Positions 1 through 7,764 of a DNA stretch of 7,764 bases are shown here, piece by piece. Source of the stretch: Candidatus Pacearchaeota archaeon. Lineage in GTDB: Archaea; Nanoarchaeota; Nanoarchaeia; Pacearchaeales; GW2011-AR1. Both the position numbers and the translations under genes were made by a program. The notes under the pieces are model-generated. The model saw nothing but the letters and a program-made list of their open reading frames with translations. It did not search any database and had not been told where the DNA came from. How positions within the stretch are numbered: the first letter of the stretch is position 1; the number at the start of each line of letters is the position of its first letter. The stretch spans positions 1 through 7,764 of the forward strand of contig NZER01000315.1 in assembly GCA_002690445.1 (NCBI GenBank), in the 5' to 3' direction.

Positions 1-1140
1 CTTGGTAGGGCCACCCTTCAGGAAGTAGTGCAATCGAGTGCGCTGGGTCTTGGTGGGATTGACTCCGCTGGCCTTCAAGACCACGATTTCCCGAATGTCC
101 TCTGGGAGTACCTGTAACAGGTAGTCTACGGCTACCTGGGCTTCCACATATGACTCCCAGTCATTGTGGTTGACCCATTCGGTGCCTACTTGCTCCCAGT
201 TGTTCAGACGCTGGTCATGGTCATTAGCCAGCCATTCCTCGCCCAGGCCATCGCTCTCACGGTAGGCCTTGCGGTCTAAGCTGATTGCGTTGCCGTGGGC
301 ATCGCTGGAGAGTACCTTGAGAGCGTTGAGTTGCCTGTACCATTCGGTATAGGCTCCGCTAATCTCCCACTTGGCAGTCTCCCAGGTGAGACCCTTATCG
401 GCCCGGTCGAGTAGGCTCGTCCAGAGATAACTCTCTAGGTCACCTACCAGATTCAGCCGATTGGGGTCTGCTTGGGCAACTCTCCAGCTAGTCTTGGCCA
501 CCAGGCCTGCCAGGTCTTGGTAGCCTGGAAGGTCTGGGCCATACGGTAAGCCCAGAGCAAAGAAGACTTCCAACGCCTTCCCTTCCCAGTTCTCCCCTGC
601 ACCGCCCCATTCTAGGTCTAGCCTGCGCTCCTTCTCCACATAGGAGTAGGAGTCTAGGGCCAGACCCTTGAGCAGTTCGGGGCCGGGGTCTTGGTCTGGG
701 TAGCGGATGGAGTCATTGCTCTGGACGCTGTAATCGGCTGGCTCATCAGCCTCAGAGGCCGTGAGAAGCCGATTAAGGGCTTGAAACTCCCTGAGCCGTA
801 CCAGACGAGGGTCAATGGTCTTTCGACCCAGGCAATCCTGGCAGAGACCGCTAACGGTCTCCAGCAGTGCGCCACAGCCAATCTCGACCTGCCATTCCCG
901 ATGAATGGGCCTGACTGGGTTGCCCCAGTAGTCTCTTTCACCGGAATCGAGCAGTTCGCTCTTGGTCACGGTGCCACTGCAAGTAGGTGCCTCAAAGCTC
1001 GCCTCACGGGCGGAAGCGTCAGCTTCCACTCGTGCCTGGTTAGCTTTGGTTCCCTTGAAGGTACGAATCGGGCCGTTCTGGCCTTCACCGTCCTGTTCGC
1101 CGATTAGGTTGTTAAGGTGCGCCGTTCTTAAAGTATTCAA
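1..1140 (-). CDS. Large hypothetical protein with putative Cys cluster, C-terminus beyond window
   Basis: A continuous minus-strand reading frame of 380 codons is open to the left edge; it lacks an early ATG. The upstream limit is an in-frame TGA at 1149-1147, so the first usable start is TTG at 1140; a GTG at 1029 is an alternative. No good ribosome site precedes the TTG. Numbering from it, C54, C89, C100 and C103 (the last pair as CQDC) with H80 could form a zinc site in the N-terminal quarter. The rest is rich in Trp, Glu and Leu. Toward the visible C-terminus the segment LPEDIREIVVLKASG is faintly like the start of sigma-70 region 4, and the stretch before it could be read as a region-2-like helix set, but no convincing helix-turn-helix follows. 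I therefore leave it unassigned. Coding is supported by length, absence of stops and amino-acid composition. Confidence 0.72.
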   Translation of the reverse strand, partial: MNTLRTAHLNNLIGEQDGEGQNGPIRTFKGTKANQARVEADASAREASFEAPTCSGTVTKSELLDSGERDYWGNPVRPIHREWQVEIGCGALLETVSGLCQDCLGRKTIDPRLVRLREFQALNRLLTASEADEPADYSVQSNDSIRYPDQDPGPELLKGLALDSYSYVEKERRLDLEWGGAGENWEGKALEVFFALGLPYGPDLPGYQDLAGLVAKTSWRVAQADPNRLNLVGDLESYLWTSLLDRADKGLTWETAKWEISGAYTEWYRQLNALKVLSSDAHGNAISLDRKAYRESDGLGEEWLANDHDQRLNNWEQVGTEWVNHNDWESYVEAQVAVDYLLQVLPEDIREIVVLKASGVNPTKTQRTRLHYFLKGGPTK

Positions 1141-1148
1141 TTCGCTTC

Positions 1149-1162
1149 ACTCATAAATGAGT
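1149..1162. promoter_or_regulatory. Short palindrome next to the left gene start
   Basis: ACTCATAAATGAGT has 6-bp arms around a 2-bp centre and lies 8 bp upstream of the proposed TTG start at 1140. Its position suits an operator or a small leader hairpin for the left gene. It also contains, on the minus strand, an ATG (1154) that opens a five-codon frame ending at TGA 1139-1137, overlapping the TTG; this could be a tiny leader peptide. Arms this short can arise by chance. Confidence 0.25.
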
Positions 1163-1279
1163 TCAGCGTCCCGTACCCACTGAACGGTAGTCACTGGCCT
1201 CAACCAGTGCCACTTCTAGACTAGCATACCCTAGCCTCAGAATGTGCCTGGAATGAAGATAAGGTGCGTTATATTCAAA

Positions 1280-1291
1280 AAGTATATACTT
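1280..1291. promoter_or_regulatory. A/T palindrome, possible promoter or operator
   Basis: AAGTATATACTT is a perfect 12-bp palindrome in an A/T-rich island (about 1268-1292) within otherwise GC-rich DNA. It contains TATACT in both orientations, so it could supply a -10-like or TATA-like element or a dimer-binding site. No matching -35 element at proper spacing was found on either strand, so this is only a candidate. Confidence 0.3.
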
Positions 1292-1316
1292 GTTGGCATT
1301 CGGTGAGCCTGGCTCC

Positions 1317-1438
1317 TGTACGAGGGGGGGAGACTGGTTGCAGTGCGTGGGCGAGGCTGGCCCTCTGCGTGGGGGGAAGCCAGGGATGGTGCGTACAAGA
1401 GGGAAGTCTGGTTCCTGCACGGGGGAGCGACCCAAATC
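1317..1438. repeat. Degenerate G-rich tandem repeats, about 22-27 bp units
   Basis: Successive units begin with TGCGT or a one- or two-base variant at 1317 (TGTAC), 1344, 1366, 1390 and 1416 (TGCAC). Each continues with a G-run, and most have CTGG or CCAGG before the next unit. Unit lengths are about 27, 22, 24 and 26 bp, the fifth being open-ended. The CTGG core recurs at 1309, 1334, 1357 and 1408, with CCAGG at 1380. A related G-rich unit occurs near 1457. The copies are too diverged and irregular for a CRISPR array. They could be decayed iterons, or G-runs able to fold on the plus strand. Confidence 0.5.
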
Positions 1439-1525
1439 TGTGCCTGCCAGGACTCTTGCGGGGAGGGGAGGCTGAGGGTCGGCCGTCCGCGCCCGCGTAC
1501 CTCTCCCCCTAATTCCCGTGAGTTT

Positions 1526-1546
1526 CCCGGTAATTCCCCGGTAATT
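1526..1546. repeat. Direct repeat CCCGGTAATT x2, 11-bp period
   Basis: CCCGGTAATT occurs at 1526-1535 and again at 1537-1546, one helical turn apart. It is flanked by related words: TTCCCG at 1514-1519 and 1524-1529, and TTTCACGGG at 1545-1553. Related CCCGGTAA and CCCGGTTT words recur in the other noncoding region at 5919-5926 and 5952-5961. The phasing suggests cooperative binding of one protein. Confidence 0.5.
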
Positions 1547-1567
1547 TCACGGGTGTTAACCTTTTTG

Positions 1568-1600
1568 CGGGAAAGTCGGTGAAAAGTCGGGAAAAGTCGA
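1568..1600. repeat. Phased AGTCG array, candidate operator or iteron
   Basis: Three copies of a GAAA(A)GTCG(G) motif stand in line, with AGTCG cores starting at 1574, 1585 and 1595, spacings of 11 and 10 bp. The 13-mer CGGGAAAGTCGGT at 1568-1580 is repeated exactly, inverted, at 5910-5922. Helical phasing and recurrence in a second noncoding gap argue for protein binding rather than chance. It could be an operator array or an iteron-type origin element. Confidence 0.6.
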
Positions 1601-1643
1601 GGGCCAGCGGCAGTGCGTTTGCATGCATGGCCCTGGCCCTCGA
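1597..1643 (-). terminator. 11-bp GC-rich inverted repeat, possible terminator
   Basis: TCGAGGGCCAG at 1597-1607 pairs perfectly with CTGGCCCTCGA at 1633-1643 across a 25-nt spacer that contains the palindrome TGCATGCA (1620-1627). Read on the minus strand it lies about 105 nt after the stop of the RuvC-like gene and is followed by CTTTT, so it could end the five-gene transcript. The loop is long and the T-tract short for an intrinsic terminator. Being next to the AGTCG array, it may instead be part of a protein-bound site. Confidence 0.35.
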
Positions 1644-1651
1644 AATACCGA

Positions 1652-1683
1652 GCCTTGGTAAGCCAGGAGGACCATACCAAGGC
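1652..1683. repeat. 9-bp inverted repeat
   Basis: GCCTTGGTA at 1652-1660 is the reverse complement of TACCAAGGC at 1675-1683, with a 14-nt spacer. It lies between the end of the RuvC-like gene and the larger inverted repeat at 1597-1643. No T-tract follows on either strand, so a terminator is unlikely; a recombinase or regulator half-site pair is possible. Confidence 0.4.
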
Positions 1684-1748
1684 CCGGCCAAGGAGATGAG
1701 GACAAACAGTGAGAACACCACTGCTTGCCTCCCTATGGTACGAAACTT

Positions 1749-2294
1749 CTACGAAACGGGCAACTTTTTACCAAAACACCCAGGATCATTCGCATCTAAA
1801 TGATATAAGGCTACTGACATGGCATCGTAAACGTGATCACTATTATCATCGCTTTTCAGGCGTAAAACATCACGAACAACAACTTCTACAGCCTCTTTCT
1901 TGGCACCCCTGCTTCCAGCAATCCGTAATTTGATTTCGCTTACTTTATAGCGGAAAACAGGCATGTTGTTAAAAGCGCCCCAGTAACTCAACATTCCTGC
2001 CATACGATACACGGGTTCAATGAAGTGACCGCCTCCACGCCGCTTTTGGTACTGAGGGTCTTCATATACAAGTGTAACGTGGCAATCACTACATTCGTTA
2101 CAATAGATATACTCATTCAGGCGATTCTCAATCTCCCGAATGATGTGATACGCCCTAACGTCTGAATCAGTGCTTTTCACCGGCCGTTTGACCGTAAAAG
2201 CCTCGACCAACTTCTTGCCGGCAAACAACGCCACACCGCAGGTGTTCGTTCCGGGGTCAATCGCCAATAAAAACCTATTACGGTGTGTATTCAC
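1749..2294 (-). CDS. RuvC-like Holliday junction resolvase
   Basis: This 181-residue protein has the RNase H-fold acidic set of RuvC-type nucleases. D13 lies in LLAIDPGTNTCGVALF, E78 in LVYEDPQY, and D153 and D157 in SDHVYDAMSVAL. Enzymes of this family cut four-way DNA junctions symmetrically using two metal ions. Length is close to bacterial RuvC (about 170-180), but the middle differs: residues 65-72 carry C65, C68, C71 and H72, a possible extra metal site, and residues 83-90 are a basic, glycine-rich loop (KRRGGGH). The start is GTG at 2294, overlapping the preceding stop as GTGA with no ribosome site of its own, so translation is probably coupled. It is the last gene of the cluster. It could process integration or replication intermediates of the element. 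Family call is firm; the exact substrate is inferred. Confidence 0.86.
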   Translation of the reverse strand: MNTHRNRFLLAIDPGTNTCGVALFAGKKLVEAFTVKRPVKSTDSDVRAYHIIREIENRLNEYIYCNECSDCHVTLVYEDPQYQKRRGGGHFIEPVYRMAGMLSYWGAFNNMPVFRYKVSEIKLRIAGSRGAKKEAVEVVVRDVLRLKSDDNSDHVYDAMSVALYHLDANDPGCFGKKLPVS

Positions 2295-2779
2295 GAGACT
2301 ATCGCCATGAACGCCTTCGCTAGGTCATCCCATTCGCTGGAAGCACTGCTACCAGCCGGGGTTAATGCATAAATCAGCCGTCTTGACTCGACGACTTCGC
2401 GGTCTTCTACGTCTACCACTTCACCGGGCGGAAAATTTCCGTTTATATTCAAAAGGGGCGCTCTGCCCACAGGGATGTCCGACGCTTCCTCTTCACGCAC
2501 TCGCTCTATCAAACCCAACCTCTTAGCAAAATAAATGTACTTACCAAAAGAATCTCGCCCCATCGGCCTCTGACGTATGCGGATGGCACTCTCTTGCTTT
2601 TCTCGGCGTATCATCGTCTTATATGTCCGATGTAAATCTTGAATAGATGCTTCGTTCGCCCGTGTTTCCTCAAAAATCGGCTTCCCCATCGGACCGATCC
2701 CCGTAATACACACCAGGGGTTGTCTTCCTGATAAAACATCCCGAATTACATGCCCGGGCCTAACAGTAGTTTTCGGCAT
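2291..2779 (-). CDS. Probable winged-helix DNA-binding protein
   Basis: A 162-residue protein not matched to a named family. Residues about 46-70 are a basic helix, followed by FGKYIYFAKRLGLIERVREEE (78-98) and later RLIYALTPAG, the pattern of a recognition helix plus beta wing in winged-helix regulators, where the wing strand often reads YxLTPxG. A role in transcription control of the cluster or binding of recombination sites is inferred. ATG 2779 is chosen because GGAAAGGAG lies about 10 nt upstream; ATG 2788 would have it only 1 nt away, and an in-frame TTG at 2806 lies inside the upstream stem-loop. The stop overlaps the next start (GTGA), coupling it to the RuvC-like nuclease. The stem-loop just upstream could be its own operator. 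Confidence 0.65.
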   Translation of the reverse strand: MPKTTVRPGHVIRDVLSGRQPLVCITGIGPMGKPIFEETRANEASIQDLHRTYKTMIRREKQESAIRIRQRPMGRDSFGKYIYFAKRLGLIERVREEEASDIPVGRAPLLNINGNFPPGEVVDVEDREVVESRRLIYALTPAGSSASSEWDDLAKAFMAIVS

Positions 2780-2804
2780 TACACCCATGCTCCTTTCCAG
2801 GCTC

Positions 2805-2858
2805 AAATCCGAACTTGCTTCCTATACACCCAAGAATATAGGAAACAAGTTCGGATTT
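2805..2858 (-). promoter_or_regulatory. 22-bp stem-loop between zinc-ribbon and winged-helix genes
   Basis: Positions 2805-2826 and 2837-2858 are inverted repeats matching at 21 of 22 positions around a 10-nt loop. The single difference (C2818 against A2845) becomes a G-U pair in minus-strand RNA but a C-A mismatch in plus-strand RNA, so a full stem forms only in the operon transcript. The right arm enters the stop codon of the zinc-ribbon gene and the left arm ends about 8 nt before the ribosome site of the winged-helix gene. No T-tract follows. Options are an RNA processing or stability element, an attenuator, a dimeric operator, or a recombinase-bound site. Confidence 0.75.
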
Positions 2859-3075
2859 AGCTCTCGGTATTTGATTCTGACCTTCGCTTTCGACCCCTTT
2901 TTCTTCTGTCGCCATGATATAGGCTTAGGTCCTCACCGTCTGGCATAAAAGGGGGAATCCATTGTGTCCCACCTTTGTCAGGGTTGCGATACAAACGGCG
3001 CCCGCAATAATAGCATTTCAACTCGTCCGAGTCTGACATCCAGTAATGAGAGCAGACCTTCTTCTTTTTGTTCAC
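2857..3075 (-). CDS. Small zinc-ribbon protein
   Basis: A 72-residue protein with C8 and H10 (CSH) plus C21 and C24 (CYYCGRR), the spacing of a small zinc ribbon or knuckle. A lysine run (NKKKK, residues 2-6) and a basic C-terminal patch (RRKRGRKRR, about 57-65) suggest nucleic-acid binding. Start is GTG at 3075 with AAGGGTGG about 4 nt upstream; an 11-bp gap follows the integrase stop. Its place between the integrase and the winged-helix gene suggests an accessory or directionality factor for recombination, but nothing in the sequence proves that. No named family recognised. Confidence 0.65.
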   Translation of the reverse strand: MNKKKKVCSHYWMSDSDELKCYYCGRRLYRNPDKGGTQWIPPFMPDGEDLSLYHGDRRKRGRKRRSESNTES

Positions 3076-3086
3076 TGCACCACCCT

Positions 3087-3866
3087 TTATAACGAGACTG
3101 GTGGAACTACCTTCTTTAGATCGTACTGGTCCGGCCTAGTGTAGTATTTGACAGTGATTGTTGGATTGGTGTGTCCTAATTGATACCCGATCTCTTCCCA
3201 GGAGAGACCTTCCTGACGCAAATGGACAGCTCTGCTATGCCGTAGCATATGCGGCGTAAACTTCCCTATCCCTGCCACTCTAGCCGCGTTTTTAAGCAGA
3301 TGGTACATATCGATGTATGTGCGGTAACCGTAAACTTTTGGGTGCTTACCTTTGCGGACTTCCATCCATTTCGCCAGATAGCCCATGCCCCATTCGCTGA
3401 CGTTAGCCCATTCTTGCCGGCCGCCCTTTCTGGTTACAAAAAGGAAGCCGTTCCAGTCAATATCGACAGTACGCACGTTTAGAATCTCGGAGATGCGAGC
3501 GCCAGCGTCGTAGAGCAAAGCAACCATGCTTTCGCTGACAAGAGACTCGCAACCCGCCAGTAACCGCTTTATTTCGTCCTTATTCAGGTATTCAGGCGTT
3601 TTAAGAATAACTGGCAAGCGTTCCATCCGGTTGGTTGGTATGCCTTCCCATTTGAGGTAGCGAAGCAGTGCTGCAACATCTAAGCCAATGGTTGCAGGCT
3701 TCAAGTCAAGGCTTTCTCGGTACGCTATAAAATCCTGGCTCTCTTCAGACGATTGTGGTAAGTGACCGTACTTTCGGACGAATTGCGTCAACGTATTCTT
3801 GTAAGCCCGCTTAGTGTTCTCGGCGGCTCTAATCTTCGTGAGAAATTCGTTTAATCGTGCCGTCAT
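3087..3866 (-). CDS. Tyrosine recombinase / integrase (XerC/D-like)
   Basis: A 259-residue protein with an N-terminal SAM-like core-binding domain (about 1-85) and a C-terminal catalytic domain. All active-site residues are visible: R124 in DAGARISE, K147 in the beta-hairpin TRKGGRQ, H206 and R209 in HMLRHSRA, H232 in LGHTNPTIT and nucleophile Y241 (H plus 9, as in XerC/D; Y242 adjacent). Such enzymes cut and rejoin DNA at paired half-sites through a 3' phosphotyrosine. It is slightly shorter than XerC/D (about 300) and lacks a long N-terminal arm-binding domain. ATG 3866 overlaps the upstream stop as TAATG, and AAGGA lies 7 nt upstream. It could integrate the element, resolve multimers or invert DNA; no paired att site is recognisable in the window. 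Confidence 0.95.
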   Translation of the reverse strand: MTARLNEFLTKIRAAENTKRAYKNTLTQFVRKYGHLPQSSEESQDFIAYRESLDLKPATIGLDVAALLRYLKWEGIPTNRMERLPVILKTPEYLNKDEIKRLLAGCESLVSESMVALLYDAGARISEILNVRTVDIDWNGFLFVTRKGGRQEWANVSEWGMGYLAKWMEVRKGKHPKVYGYRTYIDMYHLLKNAARVAGIGKFTPHMLRHSRAVHLRQEGLSWEEIGYQLGHTNPTITVKYYTRPDQYDLKKVVPPVSL

Positions 3867-4726
3867 TATGGAATCCTTAGAGAAATTCCCTGCTTAGTCT
3901 CTTCGACCCAGCAGGTCTTTGGCTCTAACGCATGGCAAAAGACTAGTAGATACCCACTATGCATAGATTTCTCTACGCACACTTGTTTTTCTGCAAATGT
4001 GAGGTCTGGATTATCGTCATAGGCAGATGTGATATCCGGGGTAACGTGGTAAGACGTTGGGCAAACATCACCCGCAAAGATAATCCGATCAGCGCCAACG
4101 TCTATCTGTAACATGGATGCATAGGAAGATGGACCAAAGGCCGGGATAATCCGCACCCCAGGTACAAGTTCTTCCTCTTGTTCAATGTAGTTAAGTTGTC
4201 CGCTTTGTTCCATGAGAGTAAAGGCAAGATCAGCCTGGGGAGTGCTTTGAGGACGTTGTCGTTGCTCAGAACCCTTATGGCAGTAGTGCGTTGCTTTGGT
4301 AAAGCGTAATTTGTGTTTACCGGCCCTGTCGCTATAAATCGTTCCGCCGGCATGGTCTTTATCCCTAGAGGTGAGGATTACATCAGTAACATCGCCAACA
4401 GATATTCCTTGGTCGCGCAACAACCTATGTAGCCGGTTGATAGAGAAGTTGTCCGCATCCTCTTCGTTGCTAAGGGACGAATCCCCTATGTCTGGAGGCC
4501 CGGTGTCTACCAGTATGGTTCGGCCAAGGTATTCAATGAGCATTATGTTGCAAGCTAGTTGGATGCGCTGATCTCTCCCAACGTGGTATTTATTCGCTTC
4601 CTTCGGGGAACTGTTAAAATGTTGAAGTAGAGTTGCCCGAGATTGAGGGCTAAAAACATTGCCACTGTCTTTCTTGGTCAAGGCAACGTCGTGTAAGGTC
4701 CATTTGAGGTTAAAGGGAGCTGTCAC
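3866..4726 (-). CDS. Metallo-beta-lactamase-fold protein with degenerate metal motif
   Basis: A 286-residue protein with the MBL-fold layout: NIMLIEYLGRTILVDTG (60-76), then the metal loop, RIIFAGDV (214-221) and a late VFCHALEP (262-269). The usual HxHxDH reads SRDKDH (120-125), so both first histidines are replaced by S120 and D122. The GHTPGH loop is GPSSYAS (198-204), also without histidine. D124, H125, D220 and H265 remain, enough for the second metal position but not the first. The protein may bind one metal, use a different chemistry, or be a non-catalytic binder. In the family, active members hydrolyse lactones, thioesters, phosphodiesters or nucleic acids. GTG 4726 has GGGAGG (4740-4735) 8 nt upstream. 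It opens the five-gene cluster and overlaps the integrase by one base. Confidence 0.85.
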   Translation of the reverse strand: MTAPFNLKWTLHDVALTKKDSGNVFSPQSRATLLQHFNSSPKEANKYHVGRDQRIQLACNIMLIEYLGRTILVDTGPPDIGDSSLSNEEDADNFSINRLHRLLRDQGISVGDVTDVILTSRDKDHAGGTIYSDRAGKHKLRFTKATHYCHKGSEQRQRPQSTPQADLAFTLMEQSGQLNYIEQEEELVPGVRIIPAFGPSSYASMLQIDVGADRIIFAGDVCPTSYHVTPDITSAYDDNPDLTFAEKQVCVEKSMHSGYLLVFCHALEPKTCWVEETKQGISLRIP

Positions 4727-4770
4727 CTAGGCTTCCTCCCGTGTTTTTCGTAGGAGGCACACAACATATC
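4727..4770. promoter_or_regulatory. 44-bp divergent intergenic region with two ribosome sites
   Basis: The starts of the MBL-fold gene (minus, 4726) and the J-domain gene (plus, 4771) are separated by only 44 bp. That space holds GGGAGG on the minus strand (4740-4735) and AGGAGG on the plus strand (4752-4757). There is no room for two full promoters, so at least one must lie inside the opposite gene or the promoters must overlap, which would couple the two transcription units. The AGGAGG to ATG distance of 13 nt is longer than usual. I found no clear -35/-10 pair. Confidence 0.5.
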
Positions 4771-5205
4771 ATGTCTTCAAATCCCGTACAACCAACTGAT
4801 AACCCACCTTCAAAACCGGCCCCAAAAAGGCGTCGGAGAAAGGATAGGGCGATGGCTAGTGTGATACAGGACTTCTTGGAGCGAACTGGCTTAAATGAAG
4901 ATTTAGAAGCGGCGGTTGCCCATGTGACCCGCCATGGTATAAACAGCTTTTGGAAAAACTTTCAGCCGGTGGACATAATCAACAACTTGCCGCCGGGGAA
5001 TTTTGCGCCGCCCGAAAATGCTGCGGATGATCCGAATGACCCTTACGTTGTGTTAGGTGTTCATAGAAGCACGCCGCCAGAAATCATAAGGGCCGTATAC
5101 ATAGCCTGGGTAAAAAATCACCACCCAGATGTGGGTGGTGATCCTGATACCTTCAAGAGGATTAACGTGGCCTACGATGAGATTAAGAAGGTGAAGGGGC
5201 TTTAG
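4771..5205 (+). CDS. J-domain (DnaJ-like) protein
   Basis: A 144-residue protein ending in a J-domain (about 90-140): PYVVLGV, helix II, the signature HPD at 118-120 in NHHPDVGGDPDTF, then FKRINVAYDEIKK. J-domains stimulate the ATPase of Hsp70 (DnaK) and steer it to a client. Unlike DnaJ, the J-domain is C-terminal and there is no Gly/Phe, zinc-finger or substrate-binding region. The N-terminal 90 residues are proline-rich then strongly basic (PKRRRRKDR, 18-26), followed by a predicted helix, so this part may bind nucleic acid or a specific partner. ATG 4771 is preferred because of AGGAGG at 4752-4757; GTG 4741 lacks a ribosome site. An element-borne co-chaperone could recruit host Hsp70 to a replication or recombination complex (inference). 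Confidence 0.88.
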   Translation: MSSNPVQPTDNPPSKPAPKRRRRKDRAMASVIQDFLERTGLNEDLEAAVAHVTRHGINSFWKNFQPVDIINNLPPGNFAPPENAADDPNDPYVVLGVHRSTPPEIIRAVYIAWVKNHHPDVGGDPDTFKRINVAYDEIKKVKGL

Positions 5206-5240
5206 TCTTCGTCGCTCACGGCGCCGCGGTATCGATTCCC

Positions 5241-5861
5241 TCAAGCAAATGGTTTACCAGTCCCTTTAGCGTAAAACATTTGGGTTGTTTTTGCGGCTCG
5301 GTGCCAAAGTTCGTCTGCCGTTCTCGCCGCGTCCTTAGCTTCATCGCACGTCTGTATCCACTCCAGTTTCGGGAGTAGAGTCATAGCGGTTTGTTTGGCT
5401 AGGTGTGCCAAAATGGTTACATGAGGGGGACCGTCCAGAGCCTTTACACGCTTGATAAAGTCTTCAACGTCATCCTTAACTTTCGGTATCATTCCGCCAG
5501 TAGCAGGACCAAGTTTGTCGTCTTTGCACTCTTGCGCTACGAAGAGTAATTGATTCCTGACATGCCCGGCAATCCGGTCTAGGTCGCAGAAAGGACACTC
5601 TTGGGCATGCTCAGCCAATGATGGCCCCGGAATATCTTCAATCCTTGGAGGGTTGAGTCGGGTGGACTCAACCCTCTCGGCTTCTACGGCCATATCTTTG
5701 AGATTTTGCTCGTATCCTTCAAGGATTTTGAGTCTTCGCTCTATAAATTTGGGAGTTACATCTTCCCGTTCTGGGGCAACGGCGATTCTGGCGACTGCCA
5801 ACCCTGTTAATCCCCGTATGACTGAAGGTATGCGTTCGGCCAAGTAGTTGTTTAAGTCCAT
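5241..5861 (-). CDS. Hypothetical helical protein with C-x2-C-x7-H cluster
   Basis: A 206-residue protein of unrecognised family, likely mostly alpha-helical. C89 and C92 (ECPFCD) with H100 and C112 could bind zinc in the middle; residues 34-68 and 124-200 are charged, coiled-coil-like helices, and the first 30 residues include a short hydrophobic stretch too weak to call a membrane segment. ATG 5861 has GGAGGG (5875-5870) 8 nt upstream, a strong ribosome site. It converges on the J-domain gene with a 35-bp gap showing no obvious terminator, and it diverges from the C2H2 gene. Its promoter must lie in the region with the AGTCG array, so the protein binding that array may control it. Function unknown. 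Confidence 0.7.
   Translation of the reverse strand: MDLNNYLAERIPSVIRGLTGLAVARIAVAPEREDVTPKFIERRLKILEGYEQNLKDMAVEAERVESTRLNPPRIEDIPGPSLAEHAQECPFCDLDRIAGHVRNQLLFVAQECKDDKLGPATGGMIPKVKDDVEDFIKRVKALDGPPHVTILAHLAKQTAMTLLPKLEWIQTCDEAKDAARTADELWHRAAKTTQMFYAKGTGKPFA
5648..5676. repeat. Perfect 12-bp inverted repeat inside a gene
   Basis: GAGGGTTGAGTC at 5648-5659 and GACTCAACCCTC at 5665-5676 are perfect reverse complements around a 5-nt loop (GGGTG). The hairpin lies within the coding region of the 206-residue protein, at about residues 62-72. It could form a stable mRNA hairpin or a dimer-binding site; no T-tract follows on either strand. Confidence 0.55.
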
Positions 5862-5879
5862 GAAAATATCCCTCCAGTA

Positions 5880-5933
5880 TCGACTTTCTGCTAGTAAATG
5901 CCGACTTCTACCGACTTTCCCGGTTTACCGACT
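5880..5933. promoter_or_regulatory. AGTCG operator/iteron-like array in divergent region
   Basis: CGACT cores (AGTCG on the minus strand) begin at 5881, 5902, 5912 and 5929, spacings of 21, 10 and 17 bp, mostly on one helical face. Three are followed by TT, giving the same GAAAGTCG or GAAGTCG words as at 1568-1600, and 5910-5922 is the exact 13-mer shared with 1568-1580. The array sits just upstream of the ribosome site of the 206-residue protein gene, where an operator would repress it, and could also influence the C2H2 gene. Confidence 0.6.
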
Positions 5934-5964
5934 ACTTATGTGGTACGATGACCCGGTAAAACCG
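5921..5964. repeat. Two CGGT/ACCG short palindromes
   Basis: CGGTTTACCG at 5921-5930 and CGGTAAAACCG at 5954-5964 have 4-bp arms with 2- or 3-nt centres and start 33 bp apart, about three helical turns. Each is preceded by CC, giving CCCGGT words like those at 1526-1546. Small but consistent with a second binding motif shared by the two noncoding regions. Confidence 0.35.
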
Positions 5965-6045
5965 CAGGACTTTTATCCCGTGTAAGCCGTCCTCGGGTTT
6001 CCCTATCATATCACCGAACTTCGCAAGGGAGTGAATAAAACCACT

Positions 6046-6603
6046 ATGTCCTACGCATGCCAGTGGTGTGACTACATTACCAGTGACGAAAACCCCGGTG
6101 CCAATACAAACGAGTTATTTACCATCCTAAATGCTCATCAAGCAGCGGAACACCCCGATGAGAAGAAAGCGACTATGAGGGGTCCGCGAGGCAAAAGGAA
6201 CACCAAGCCAAAATCAGAACGGCGGAAAAAGGTGGAAGAAGATGACGTTTCCCCTTCTGAAGTGGCTCGTGATGGCGATGTTAGAGTTCGCCTGACAAAC
6301 GAACAAATCTCGTTACCGGGTGAACTGTTTGTTCTATACACATGGATAAAGACCCAGTTTCCAGAATACACGGCAACTAAAGCGGATTGGTTACAGCATG
6401 TGGTAGCCACCTGGGCGATAGAGCATGCTGAAGAAATAAACTTACCGGCGATCCCTGGAGTTTTCATCGGTAATGCTCTCAACTTGGAAGAACCGGAGGA
6501 TGAAGATGGCGAAGCCGACAGCGAAGAGCAATCAGTTCCCGTGGCAGATTGGAATCAACTCATCGAAGAAGACGGAGAGTACGAATCCATCTTCAGTGGA
6601 TAA
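6046..6603 (+). CDS. C2H2-type zinc-finger protein with acidic tail
   Basis: A 185-residue protein from ATG 6046. A near-complete ribosome site, AAGGGAGTGA (6025-6034), lies 11 nt upstream; the in-frame GTG 6031 sits inside it, so ATG is preferred. C5, C8, H31 and H36 form a C-x2-C-x22-H-x4-H finger with an enlarged loop. A basic linker follows (RGPRGKRNTKPKSERRKK, about 46-63), then a folded region with RVRLTNEQISLPGELF and WLQHVVATWAIEHAEE (about 80-145), and an acidic tail (EEPEDEDGEADSEEQ, about 147-161). Finger plus basic linker suggests DNA or RNA binding; the acidic tail could contact a partner. Single C2H2 fingers are frequent in viral and plasmid regulators of prokaryotes, especially archaeal viruses. 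It leads a rightward unit with the next gene, 13 bp away. Specific function unknown. Confidence 0.75.
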   Translation: MSYACQWCDYITSDENPGANTNELFTILNAHQAAEHPDEKKATMRGPRGKRNTKPKSERRKKVEEDDVSPSEVARDGDVRVRLTNEQISLPGELFVLYTWIKTQFPEYTATKADWLQHVVATWAIEHAEEINLPAIPGVFIGNALNLEEPEDEDGEADSEEQSVPVADWNQLIEEDGEYESIFSG

Positions 6604-6616
6604 ATTCTGGGGTTCT

Positions 6617-7764
6617 ATGGCTGATTTAGCTAAGATGAGGACAGCGGCTCAGGCTGGTAATCTCCTACAAGAACCGTCGGCCGGCGGTACTGGAACTATC
6701 GGCCAACTAACGGAAGTAGCAAAAGCCTTTGGGATGGATATGCCCAAGATGGCCCAAGAGCGAGATAAGCTATTGGTTGAGTTAAGCAACGCGAAGAATG
6801 ACGCCCAAAAAGCCGAGGCAAAAGCAGAGTTAAGCCGGGTAGAGAGCCAAATCGAAGGCCTCAAAACCATGCTGTCGAATAATCAGGCTCCAGCCAATGA
6901 TCCCTTGCGGGATATGGCTGTTGAGATGGCTAAAACAGCACTACAAAACTCGCAAGGTGGTGGCGATAGCAACGACCCTGTTGCCTCGGCTTACAAGCAA
7001 TTCGTTATGAATAAAACTCTTGAAGACCTTGAAGCGGCTCGTAACCCGGTCAGCGTTCAAGACCAAGTCGGTGGAGCCGTCGAAACTTTGCGAGCGATAA
7101 GAGAGCTTGGTGCCGCTTTCGCACCTCCGGCACCGCCTCCGGCCCCTCAATCGACTTTTAGTCCTGAAAAACAGATGGAATTGGAGCTGAAGAAGCTAGA
7201 GATAGAACAGCAACTGGAGATATACCGGATAAACAAAGAGAACGAAGCAGCCACTCAGCGTGCGTCTTCGATGCAGGATGCCATTAAGATGGTCGGTAAT
7301 GCCCTGGAGGGTATCGGAAAGAGTGTTGCTGATAGTTTGCTTACTCGGAGTTCTGGATACGTTCCGTCAGCAGATATCCCCACACCGGACCCTTCTAATA
7401 TGATTGATGATTCCGAGATGATCCAATCACCTTCTGATGTCGGTGAAGAGGATGATGCTTTAGTCGGGAAGCTAGAATGTCCTGATTGCGGCCAGGAAGC
7501 CGTGTATGTGACGGCCAGGATGTACAATGCAGGCCAACGCGGTGAAAAAGTCGAGGCGGCCTGTGTCGCTTGCGGGTCAAAGCATGAACTGGGCGACTCG
7601 GAGCCGGAAGATGACCAAACCCCAGTGCAACCGCAGGCTTTCGCACCACCGAAGGACGCACCTCCTCCGGTGCCAACTGGAGTCCGGGAAACCGACCTCA
7701 GTGCGCCAGGCACAACTCGGAACGGGAAAGAACGACCGCAACGTCGCAACTTTGTATCGGTGGA
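6617..7764 (+). CDS. Coiled-coil, proline-rich zinc-ribbon protein, cut by right edge
   Basis: A reading frame of 382 complete codons with no stop before the window ends. Domains in order: helical N-terminus with a coiled coil (about 40-85, many Glu, Lys and Ala); glycine/asparagine-rich linker; helices (about 115-165); proline-rich hinge APPAPPPAPQ (169-178); second charged coiled coil (about 183-215, KQMELELKKLEIEQQLE); a zinc ribbon with C288, C291, C316 and C319 (C-x2-C-x24-C-x2-C); and another proline-rich stretch (343-354). The ribbon suggests nucleic-acid or protein contact; the coiled coils suggest oligomers or a scaffold. ATG 6617 has only TGGGG upstream; GTG 6596 would overlap the previous stop by 8 bp and add VDKFWGS. 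It follows the C2H2 gene closely and probably shares its transcript. Family not recognised. Confidence 0.8.
   Translation, partial: MADLAKMRTAAQAGNLLQEPSAGGTGTIGQLTEVAKAFGMDMPKMAQERDKLLVELSNAKNDAQKAEAKAELSRVESQIEGLKTMLSNNQAPANDPLRDMAVEMAKTALQNSQGGGDSNDPVASAYKQFVMNKTLEDLEAARNPVSVQDQVGGAVETLRAIRELGAAFAPPAPPPAPQSTFSPEKQMELELKKLEIEQQLEIYRINKENEAATQRASSMQDAIKMVGNALEGIGKSVADSLLTRSSGYVPSADIPTPDPSNMIDDSEMIQSPSDVGEEDDALVGKLECPDCGQEAVYVTARMYNAGQRGEKVEAACVACGSKHELGDSEPEDDQTPVQPQAFAPPKDAPPPVPTGVRETDLSAPGTTRNGKERPQRRNFVSV

What the first reader, a model, noticed from the sequence alone, without database searches (positions are those of the whole stretch)
1568..5933. Same helically phased AGTCG motif array in two distant noncoding regions
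CGGGAAAGTCGGT (13 bp) occurs exactly at 1568-1580 and inverted at 5910-5922, about 4.3 kb apart. Both copies sit in clusters of AGTCG cores spaced 11 and 10 bp (left) and 21, 10 and 17 bp (right). Phasing near one or two helical turns and confinement of the clusters to the two main gaps point to one dedicated DNA-binding protein, with the arrays as operators or origin iterons. They also mark both flanks of the recombinase cluster as part of one element.
Basis: partly seen in the sequence, partly recalled or inferred. Interest (0 to 1): 0.72.

Follow-up and report, generated by a model that had tools for sequence, protein, structure and literature searches.

The report
Paired AAGTCG repeat clusters, function unproven
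A short DNA word is clustered in two gaps between the genes of an uncharacterised piece of environmental DNA; the two clusters are probably docking sites for one DNA-binding protein, a known kind of arrangement, but neither the protein nor the function could be shown.

Summary
Coordinates and clusters are right. The 13-mer is exact at 1568-1580(+) and 5910-5922(-), but a repeated 13-mer alone is chance level (207 of 300 shuffles). The clustering is not: AAGTCG occurs three times within 45 bp at both places; no 6-mer did so in 400 global or 400 local shuffles, nor in 74 real viral segments of the same length. Seven of 16 AGTCG copies lie in the 12.5% of the window that is noncoding. Phasing is weaker than claimed: the 17-bp spacing is out of phase, and the left array is also a plain 10-11 bp tandem repeat.

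The window appears to be a whole 7,764-bp contig. No DNA of a close relative could be fetched, so conservation is untested. No binding protein is identified; the labels winged-helix and C2H2 gained no support. I read the clusters as sites of one element-encoded protein: an operator before the 5241-5861 gene and a second array in a hairpin-rich gap that may be an origin or maintenance site. Elsewhere AAAGTCG triplets about 11 bp apart sit inside phage DUF1376 genes, like iterons, but also beside integrases and on chromosomal contigs, so the motif names no function.

The parts
1568..1599 (+). left array: three AAAGTCG copies (cores 1574, 1585, 1595), spacing 11 and 10 bp
   Evidence: TRF period 10, 3.2 copies
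5881..5933 (-). right array: four AGTCG cores (5881, 5902, 5912, 5929), spacing 21, 10 and 17 bp
   Evidence: 20-72 bp upstream of the 5241-5861 start codon (read)
1526..1546 (+). second short tandem repeat in the left gap, CCCGGTAATTC x 1.9; CCCGGTAA recurs at 5952 in the right gap and once at 6313 (-) inside a gene
   Evidence: TRF; positions
1510..1687 (.). hairpin-rich stretch of the left gap (arms 1510-1530/1538-1558, 1597-1612/1628-1643, 1648-1660/1675-1687)
   Evidence: ssDNA fold of 1500-1700 z -5.22, 0 of 200 shuffles as stable
1141..1748 (.). left noncoding gap
   Evidence: no plausible gene among the ORFs; overlapping short ORFs are listed there
5862..6045 (.). right gap, between two divergent genes
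1..1140 (-). gene cut by the contig end, 380 aa here; relative P0042 of 424 aa is 99% identical; no Pfam, NCBIfam or PHROG match
1749..2294 (-). RuvC-like Holliday junction endonuclease
   Evidence: PF02075 E 8.8e-11
2291..2779 (-).
   Evidence: 18 homologues including the window's own; low-confidence model
2857..3075 (-). 72-aa ORF, no Pfam match
3087..3866 (-). tyrosine recombinase, XerA-like
   Evidence: PF00589 E 6.3e-23; NF040815 below its cut-off
3866..4726 (-). metallo-beta-lactamase-fold hydrolase
   Evidence: PF00753 E 2.1e-11
4771..5205 (+). protein with a C-terminal DnaJ domain
   Evidence: PF00226 E 3.7e-07
5241..5861 (-). 206-aa helical protein of a new family; right array lies just upstream
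   Evidence: 41 homologues; model pLDDT 77.0, no PDB match at E <= 0.001
6046..6603 (+). 185-aa product with CxxC and HxxxxH, divergent from the 206-aa gene
6617..7764 (+). gene running off the contig end, zinc-ribbon-like CxxC pairs near the end
   Evidence: weak, below-cut-off Pfam matches only

Best explanation
The two clusters are binding arrays for one sequence-specific DNA-binding protein of a mobile element, recognising about (G/A)AAGTCGG head to tail. At the right array the protein sits between promoter and start of the 206-aa gene and represses it or switches between the two divergent genes. At the left array it sits in a long, hairpin-rich, gene-free stretch that is best read as the element's replication or maintenance site, so that one protein ties copy control to gene expression, as plasmid initiators and segregation proteins do. 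Shown: both clusters, their non-randomness, the positions, the secondary-structure potential. Inferred: that a protein binds, that it is one protein, that it comes from this element, and both functions.
For: AAGTCG clustered at two distant gaps, 0 of 400 and 0 of 400 shuffles, 0 of 74 real segments; excess in noncoding DNA. The right array consists of dispersed copies with different spacers, which simple duplication does not explain. The right array ends 5 bp from the ribosome-binding-site-like GGAGG of the 206-aa gene. Left gap: 608 bp without a plausible gene, two tandem 10-11 bp arrays, ssDNA fold z -5.22, local positive GC skew at 1201-1650. Precedent for similar words as iteron-like arrays: AAAGTCG triplets inside DUF1376 genes in 4 viral loci and inside a Phg_2220_C gene in one, all 5 tested by Pfam; positions.
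Against: No initiator, partition or repressor gene was recognised on the contig. DnaA-box-like matches at 1 mismatch are at background (10 against 10.4 expected) and none is exact. No sigma-70-like promoter was found in either gap. One right spacing is out of phase. The left array lies 428 bp from the start of the leftward gene and 150 bp past the RuvC stop, an odd place for an operator. AAAGTCG triplets also occur beside integrase genes (L243, L245) and on many chromosomal contigs, so the word has no fixed meaning. Conservation could not be tested.
Confidence: 0.42

Rival explanations
1. The clusters have no common function. The left one is a young 10-11 bp tandem duplication and the right one a chance run that resembles it.
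For: The left array is a tandem repeat. Repeated 13-mers are common by chance. In 120 viral loci (1.12 Mb) 8 loci held some 7-mer three times at 10-11 bp. For 5-mers a double cluster occurs in 7 of 74 real segments. Two right copies are weak by the left-one-out matrix.
Against: 0 of 800 shuffles and 0 of 74 real segments show a 6-mer double cluster; both clusters fall in noncoding DNA.
Confidence: 0.22
2. The left array is the U-tract of a transcription terminator of the leftward RuvC operon (hairpin 1597-1643 followed on the minus strand by CTTTTCCCGACTTTTC), and only the right array is an operator.
For: The hairpin and its T-containing tail are read; the minus-strand RNA of 1300-1700 folds with z -3.30, 0 of 100 shuffles as stable.
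Against: The T runs are short and broken; the terminator scan reported nothing in this gap, though it misses hairpins of this shape. It does not explain the right cluster.
Confidence: 0.14
3. The arrays are arm-type binding sites of the tyrosine recombinase at 3087-3866.
For: A recombinase lies between the arrays. In L245 and L243 an AAAGTCG array at 11-bp spacing begins within about 30 bp of an integrase gene.
Against: Here the arrays lie about 1.5 kb and 2.0 kb from the recombinase gene. No tRNA and no att core was found. The recombinase lacks a clear arm-binding domain and is XerA-like. ARAGORN found no tRNA at L243 or L245 either.
Confidence: 0.12
4. The inverted arrays act as RNA: the leader of the 206-aa mRNA (AAAGUCGG copies) pairs with the 3' end of the RuvC-operon transcript (CGACUUU copies), both made from the minus strand.
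For: Because the arrays are inverted, same-strand transcripts of the two gaps are complementary over 13 nt; duplex energy -55.5 kcal/mol against a mean of -38.9.
Against: 2 of 174 other segments pair as well or better. Any inverted pair of protein sites gives the same complementarity. No transcripts are known.
Confidence: 0.05

Closest known systems
Phage origins with 11-bp iterons inside a DUF1376-type gene next to DnaB (for example Sinorhizobium phage phiLM21)
   Same: Direct repeats at about 11 bp; in L025, L027, L039 and L072 the repeat core is even AAAGTCG. phiLM21 has 11-bp repeats of another sequence in its 'primosomal protein' gene beside a DnaB-like helicase.
   Different: Window arrays lie in noncoding DNA; no DUF1376 or DnaB gene is on the contig. 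The other two named phages tested, Pkon1 and pCB2047-C, show no clear 11-bp array (best 20/33 at lag 22 and 18/33 at lag 21). That these are origins is inference.
Iteron plasmids whose initiator binds origin repeats and represses its own promoter (general knowledge; listing seen, no paper opened)
   Same: Two sets of sites for one protein, one in a structured gap, one at a promoter position.
   Different: No initiator gene recognised, repeats shorter than typical iterons (recalled), DnaA boxes at background.
ParR/parC-type or StbA-type segregation arrays (recalled; listing seen, no paper opened)
   Same: Direct repeats about one helical turn apart, often upstream of the operon they control.
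   Different: No ParM, ParA or ParR match on the contig.
Integrase arm-type arrays (L243, L245)
   Same: AAAGTCGG at 11-bp spacing near a tyrosine recombinase gene.
   Different: Array adjoins the integrase gene there; here it is 1.5-2 kb away on both sides.

Membership tests
Iteron-type replication origin | three or more direct repeats at helical spacing | tested here: met
   left array, 11 and 10 bp
Iteron-type replication origin | initiator gene on the replicon | tested here: inconclusive
   none recognised by Pfam, PHROGs or NCBIfam, but the contig is only part of the element
Iteron-type replication origin | DnaA boxes beside the iterons | tested here: not met
   no exact match; 10 one-mismatch matches against 10.4 expected, one of them in the right gap at 6030-6038
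DUF1376-gene phage origin | array inside a DUF1376-type gene | tested here: not met
   arrays noncoding; no DUF1376 match
Operator of a divergent gene pair | repeats between divergent genes, close to a start codon | tested here: met
   right array 20-72 bp upstream of the 206-aa gene; next gene on + starts at 6031 or 6046
Operator of a divergent gene pair | recognisable promoter overlapping the sites | tested here: not met
   no sigma-70-like site in the gap; other promoter types not covered
Operator of a divergent gene pair | a regulator that binds the sites | not testable with these tools
   needs binding assays
Integrase arm-type sites (attP) | tyrosine recombinase present | tested here: met
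   PF00589
Integrase arm-type sites (attP) | sites next to the recombinase gene with an att core or tRNA | tested here: not met
   1.5-2 kb away; no tRNA in the window
Plasmid partition site | Par motor and adaptor genes | tested here: not met
   no such match among the ten proteins scanned; genes off the contig unknown

The most novel reading that the evidence does not exclude
A mobile-element lineage found so far only on short contigs without a named organism uses one unidentified protein, of no known DNA-binding family, whose AAGTCGG arrays both repress a core gene and organise a hairpin-rich origin or maintenance site. The protein would be one of the family-less neighbours (162, 185 or 206 aa).
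Probability: 0.2. Interest if true: 0.5.

Novelty: new member of a known kind. Interest (0 to 1): 0.28.

Why it matters
If the arrays are real protein sites they give a handle on an otherwise unannotated element: they would name its regulator, its control region and perhaps its origin, and would let its contigs be joined to one another and to a host. The broader side result is a caution: AAAGTCG repeats at 10-11 bp turn up in phage replication genes, beside integrases and on chromosomal contigs, so such an array should not be called an origin or operator from sequence alone.

Tried and rejected
Host and element identity. No whole genome is held. The window had no megablast match in the phage collection. 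Relatives of the 206-aa protein: 41 proteins (sources ena, jgi, lgn, one also ncbi, no organism names), none confirmed in IMG/VR or in the GTDB genome contigs (patterns matched 51 stretches, none a relative), none in phages. The 162-aa protein: 18 proteins including the window's own, none confirmed in IMG/VR, its relative P0060 not in phages. The 1-1140 protein: 10 proteins, none in phages. RuvC: none confirmed in IMG/VR with the single sequence, none in plasmids, one weak phage match, 28% identity, E 8e-4. Recombinase and hydrolase: only matches below 60% identity in plasmids. Whole genomes: the 162-aa family in 0 of 5 and 0 of 400, the 206-aa family in 0 of 400; the phylum was a guess and there was no positive control. 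So no close relative's DNA was obtained and the decisive conservation test could not be done.

Motif specificity. Of 120 each, codon-phased spacing 57 against 112, tandem 64 against 74, neither 36 against 5. I first took this as a sign of a special motif. It rests on one control word, and (94 oriented 7-mers with such triplets in 1.12 Mb, all in 8 of 120 loci, three of which hold most) shows that triplets at 10-11 bp are not rare enough to call the 13 IMG/VR contigs an excess. The genome scan stopped at its limit with 119 stretches, many from rumen Bacteroidales and cyanobacteria. The origin precedent rests on 5 array-bearing genes tested by Pfam, not on all loci; 3 of the 13 contigs (L025, L039, L072) are of this type, L027 and L005 come.

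Structure. The 206-aa model (pLDDT 77.0) and the 162-aa model (65.3) gave no PDB match at E <= 0.001. Profile searches of solved structures: none for two families. Rfam: nothing above a gathering score. My early idea that the 1-1140 protein is sigma-like is an eye impression only; no library supports it. Its homologue alignment is. My notebook entry 3 speaks of a tRNA beside the L243/L245 array; ARAGORN found none, so I dropped it.

Papers: search listings only; none was opened. AAAGTCGG with iteron: 0 papers; AAAGTCG with direct repeats and phage: 9, none relevant by title and start of abstract.
Full report
What is there. The window has ten main genes: an incomplete leftward gene at 1-1140; a leftward row with a RuvC-like nuclease, a 162-aa protein, a 72-aa ORF, a XerA-like tyrosine recombinase and a metallo-beta-lactamase-fold hydrolase (1749-4726); a rightward DnaJ-domain gene; a leftward 206-aa gene (5241-5861); and two rightward genes from 6046. 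Protein P0054, identical to part of the 162-aa protein, is recorded on a contig of 7,764 bases, so the window is most likely a whole contig, with both end genes cut.

The observation. The 13-mer match carries little weight, since 207 of 300 dinucleotide shuffles hold some repeated 13-mer. The double clustering carries weight. Searching every word, not just this one, AAGTCG is the only 6-mer of at least three letters that comes three times in 45 bp at two places 1 kb or more apart; 0 of 400 global and 0 of 400 local shuffles show any such 6-mer, and 0 of 74 real viral segments of equal length show one among four-letter 6-mers. For 5-mers the event is commoner (7 and 15 of 400 shuffles; 7 of 74 real segments). 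The real segments were the first 7,764 bases of loci selected for another repeat word, which if anything raises their repeat content. The two gaps also share more 7-, 8- and 10-mers with each other than the left gap shares with any of 273 other stretches; for 9-mers 4 of 273 do as well.

Limits of the observation. The word itself is not in excess in the window (16 against 12.9) and 9 of 16 copies lie in genes. One of five spacings is off phase. The left array is a 3.2-copy tandem repeat, so regular spacing there needs no selection. By a left-one-out matrix, 5 of 7 copies stand in the top 8 of 15,500 positions, but those at 5902 and 5929 rank 22 and 19.

Surroundings. The right array lies between divergent genes. 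Its nearest core (5881-5885) is 5 bp beyond the GGAGG (5871-5875) that precedes the ATG of the 206-aa gene (5859-5861), so it covers the leader and promoter region of that gene; this is read. No sigma-70-like promoter was scored in either gap. The left gap is 608 bp without a plausible gene. It carries a second short tandem repeat, CCCGGTAATTC at 1526-1546, whose CCCGGTAA core recurs in the right gap at 5952 and once inside a gene at 6313, and a string of hairpins: the ssDNA of 1500-1700 folds with z -5.22, 0 of 200 shuffles as stable. On the minus strand the 1597-1643 hairpin is followed by a broken T tract made by the array itself, so a terminator of the RuvC operon is a live alternative for the left array.

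Relatives. The 206-aa, 162-aa and 1-1140 proteins have 41, 18 (the window's own included) and 10 database relatives, with no organism names. None was confirmed in IMG/VR, for the 206-aa family nor in GTDB genome contigs, and none in the phage collection where tested. With no relative's DNA, conservation of the arrays could not be tested, and this is the main gap in this report.

The motif elsewhere. A complete IMG/VR scan for AAAGTCG three times at 10-11 bp found 13 contigs. In three of these, L025, L039 and L072, and in L027 from the wider scan, the array lies on the coding strand inside a gene with a DUF1376 domain, at nucleotides 271-373 of the gene, after the domain. In L005 it lies, on the other strand, inside a Phg_2220_C gene next to a gene whose start I judged DnaB-like by eye. 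Because 11 bp is not a multiple of three, such repeats must be kept at the DNA level or be young. Sinorhizobium phage phiLM21 has an 11-bp array of another sequence at the same place in its 'primosomal protein' gene beside a DnaB-like helicase; two other named phages tested do not show one clearly. This suggests origin iterons, by inference. But L243 and L245 carry the array beside an integrase gene, L037 between a primase-helicase-like gene and a recombinase, and many chromosomal contigs carry it too. So the same word serves, or arises, in several settings.

Judgement. One protein binding both arrays, with an operator at the right and an origin or maintenance role at the left, is the reading I hold most likely (0.42), and every functional step in it is inferred. 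Rivals are no common function (0.22), a terminator tail at the left (0.14), integrase arm sites (0.12) and RNA pairing (0.05). The kind of arrangement is well known; what is new is only the element. Hence a low interest score.

Noticed in passing
2804-2860: Near-perfect hairpin with 13-bp outer and 8-bp inner arms between the 72-aa ORF and the 162-aa gene; DNA fold z -9.70, 0 of 200 shuffles as stable. No T tract; possibly an operator, a recombination site or a small mobile repeat.
   Followed up: partly
1-1700: The left part is mostly richer in G+C and its gene has position-3 G+C 0.65 against 0.47-0.55 in seven other genes: different origin, expression, or a junction near 1650-1700.
   Followed up: partly
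1-1140: The C-terminal stretch of this family (from P0042, beyond the contig end in part) is far better kept than the rest, even in the 40%-identical P0051; function unknown.
   Followed up: no
L246-L364 (genome contigs): Several uncultured Bacteroidales and Prevotellaceae assemblies and Microcoleus-type cyanobacteria contribute many separate contigs with AAAGTCG triplets at 10-11 bp: a possible genome-wide repeat of their own.
   Followed up: no
L025:504-543, L039:2275-2303, L072:12864-12892, L027:441-480: Repeats at 11 or 22 bp with an AAAGTCG core inside DUF1376 genes, a candidate class of phage origins.
   Followed up: partly
1320-1480: G-rich stretch in the left gap with runs of five to seven G and positive GC skew.
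   Followed up: no
4771-5205: A DnaJ-domain protein on the opposite strand to its neighbours, between the hydrolase and the 206-aa gene.
   Followed up: no
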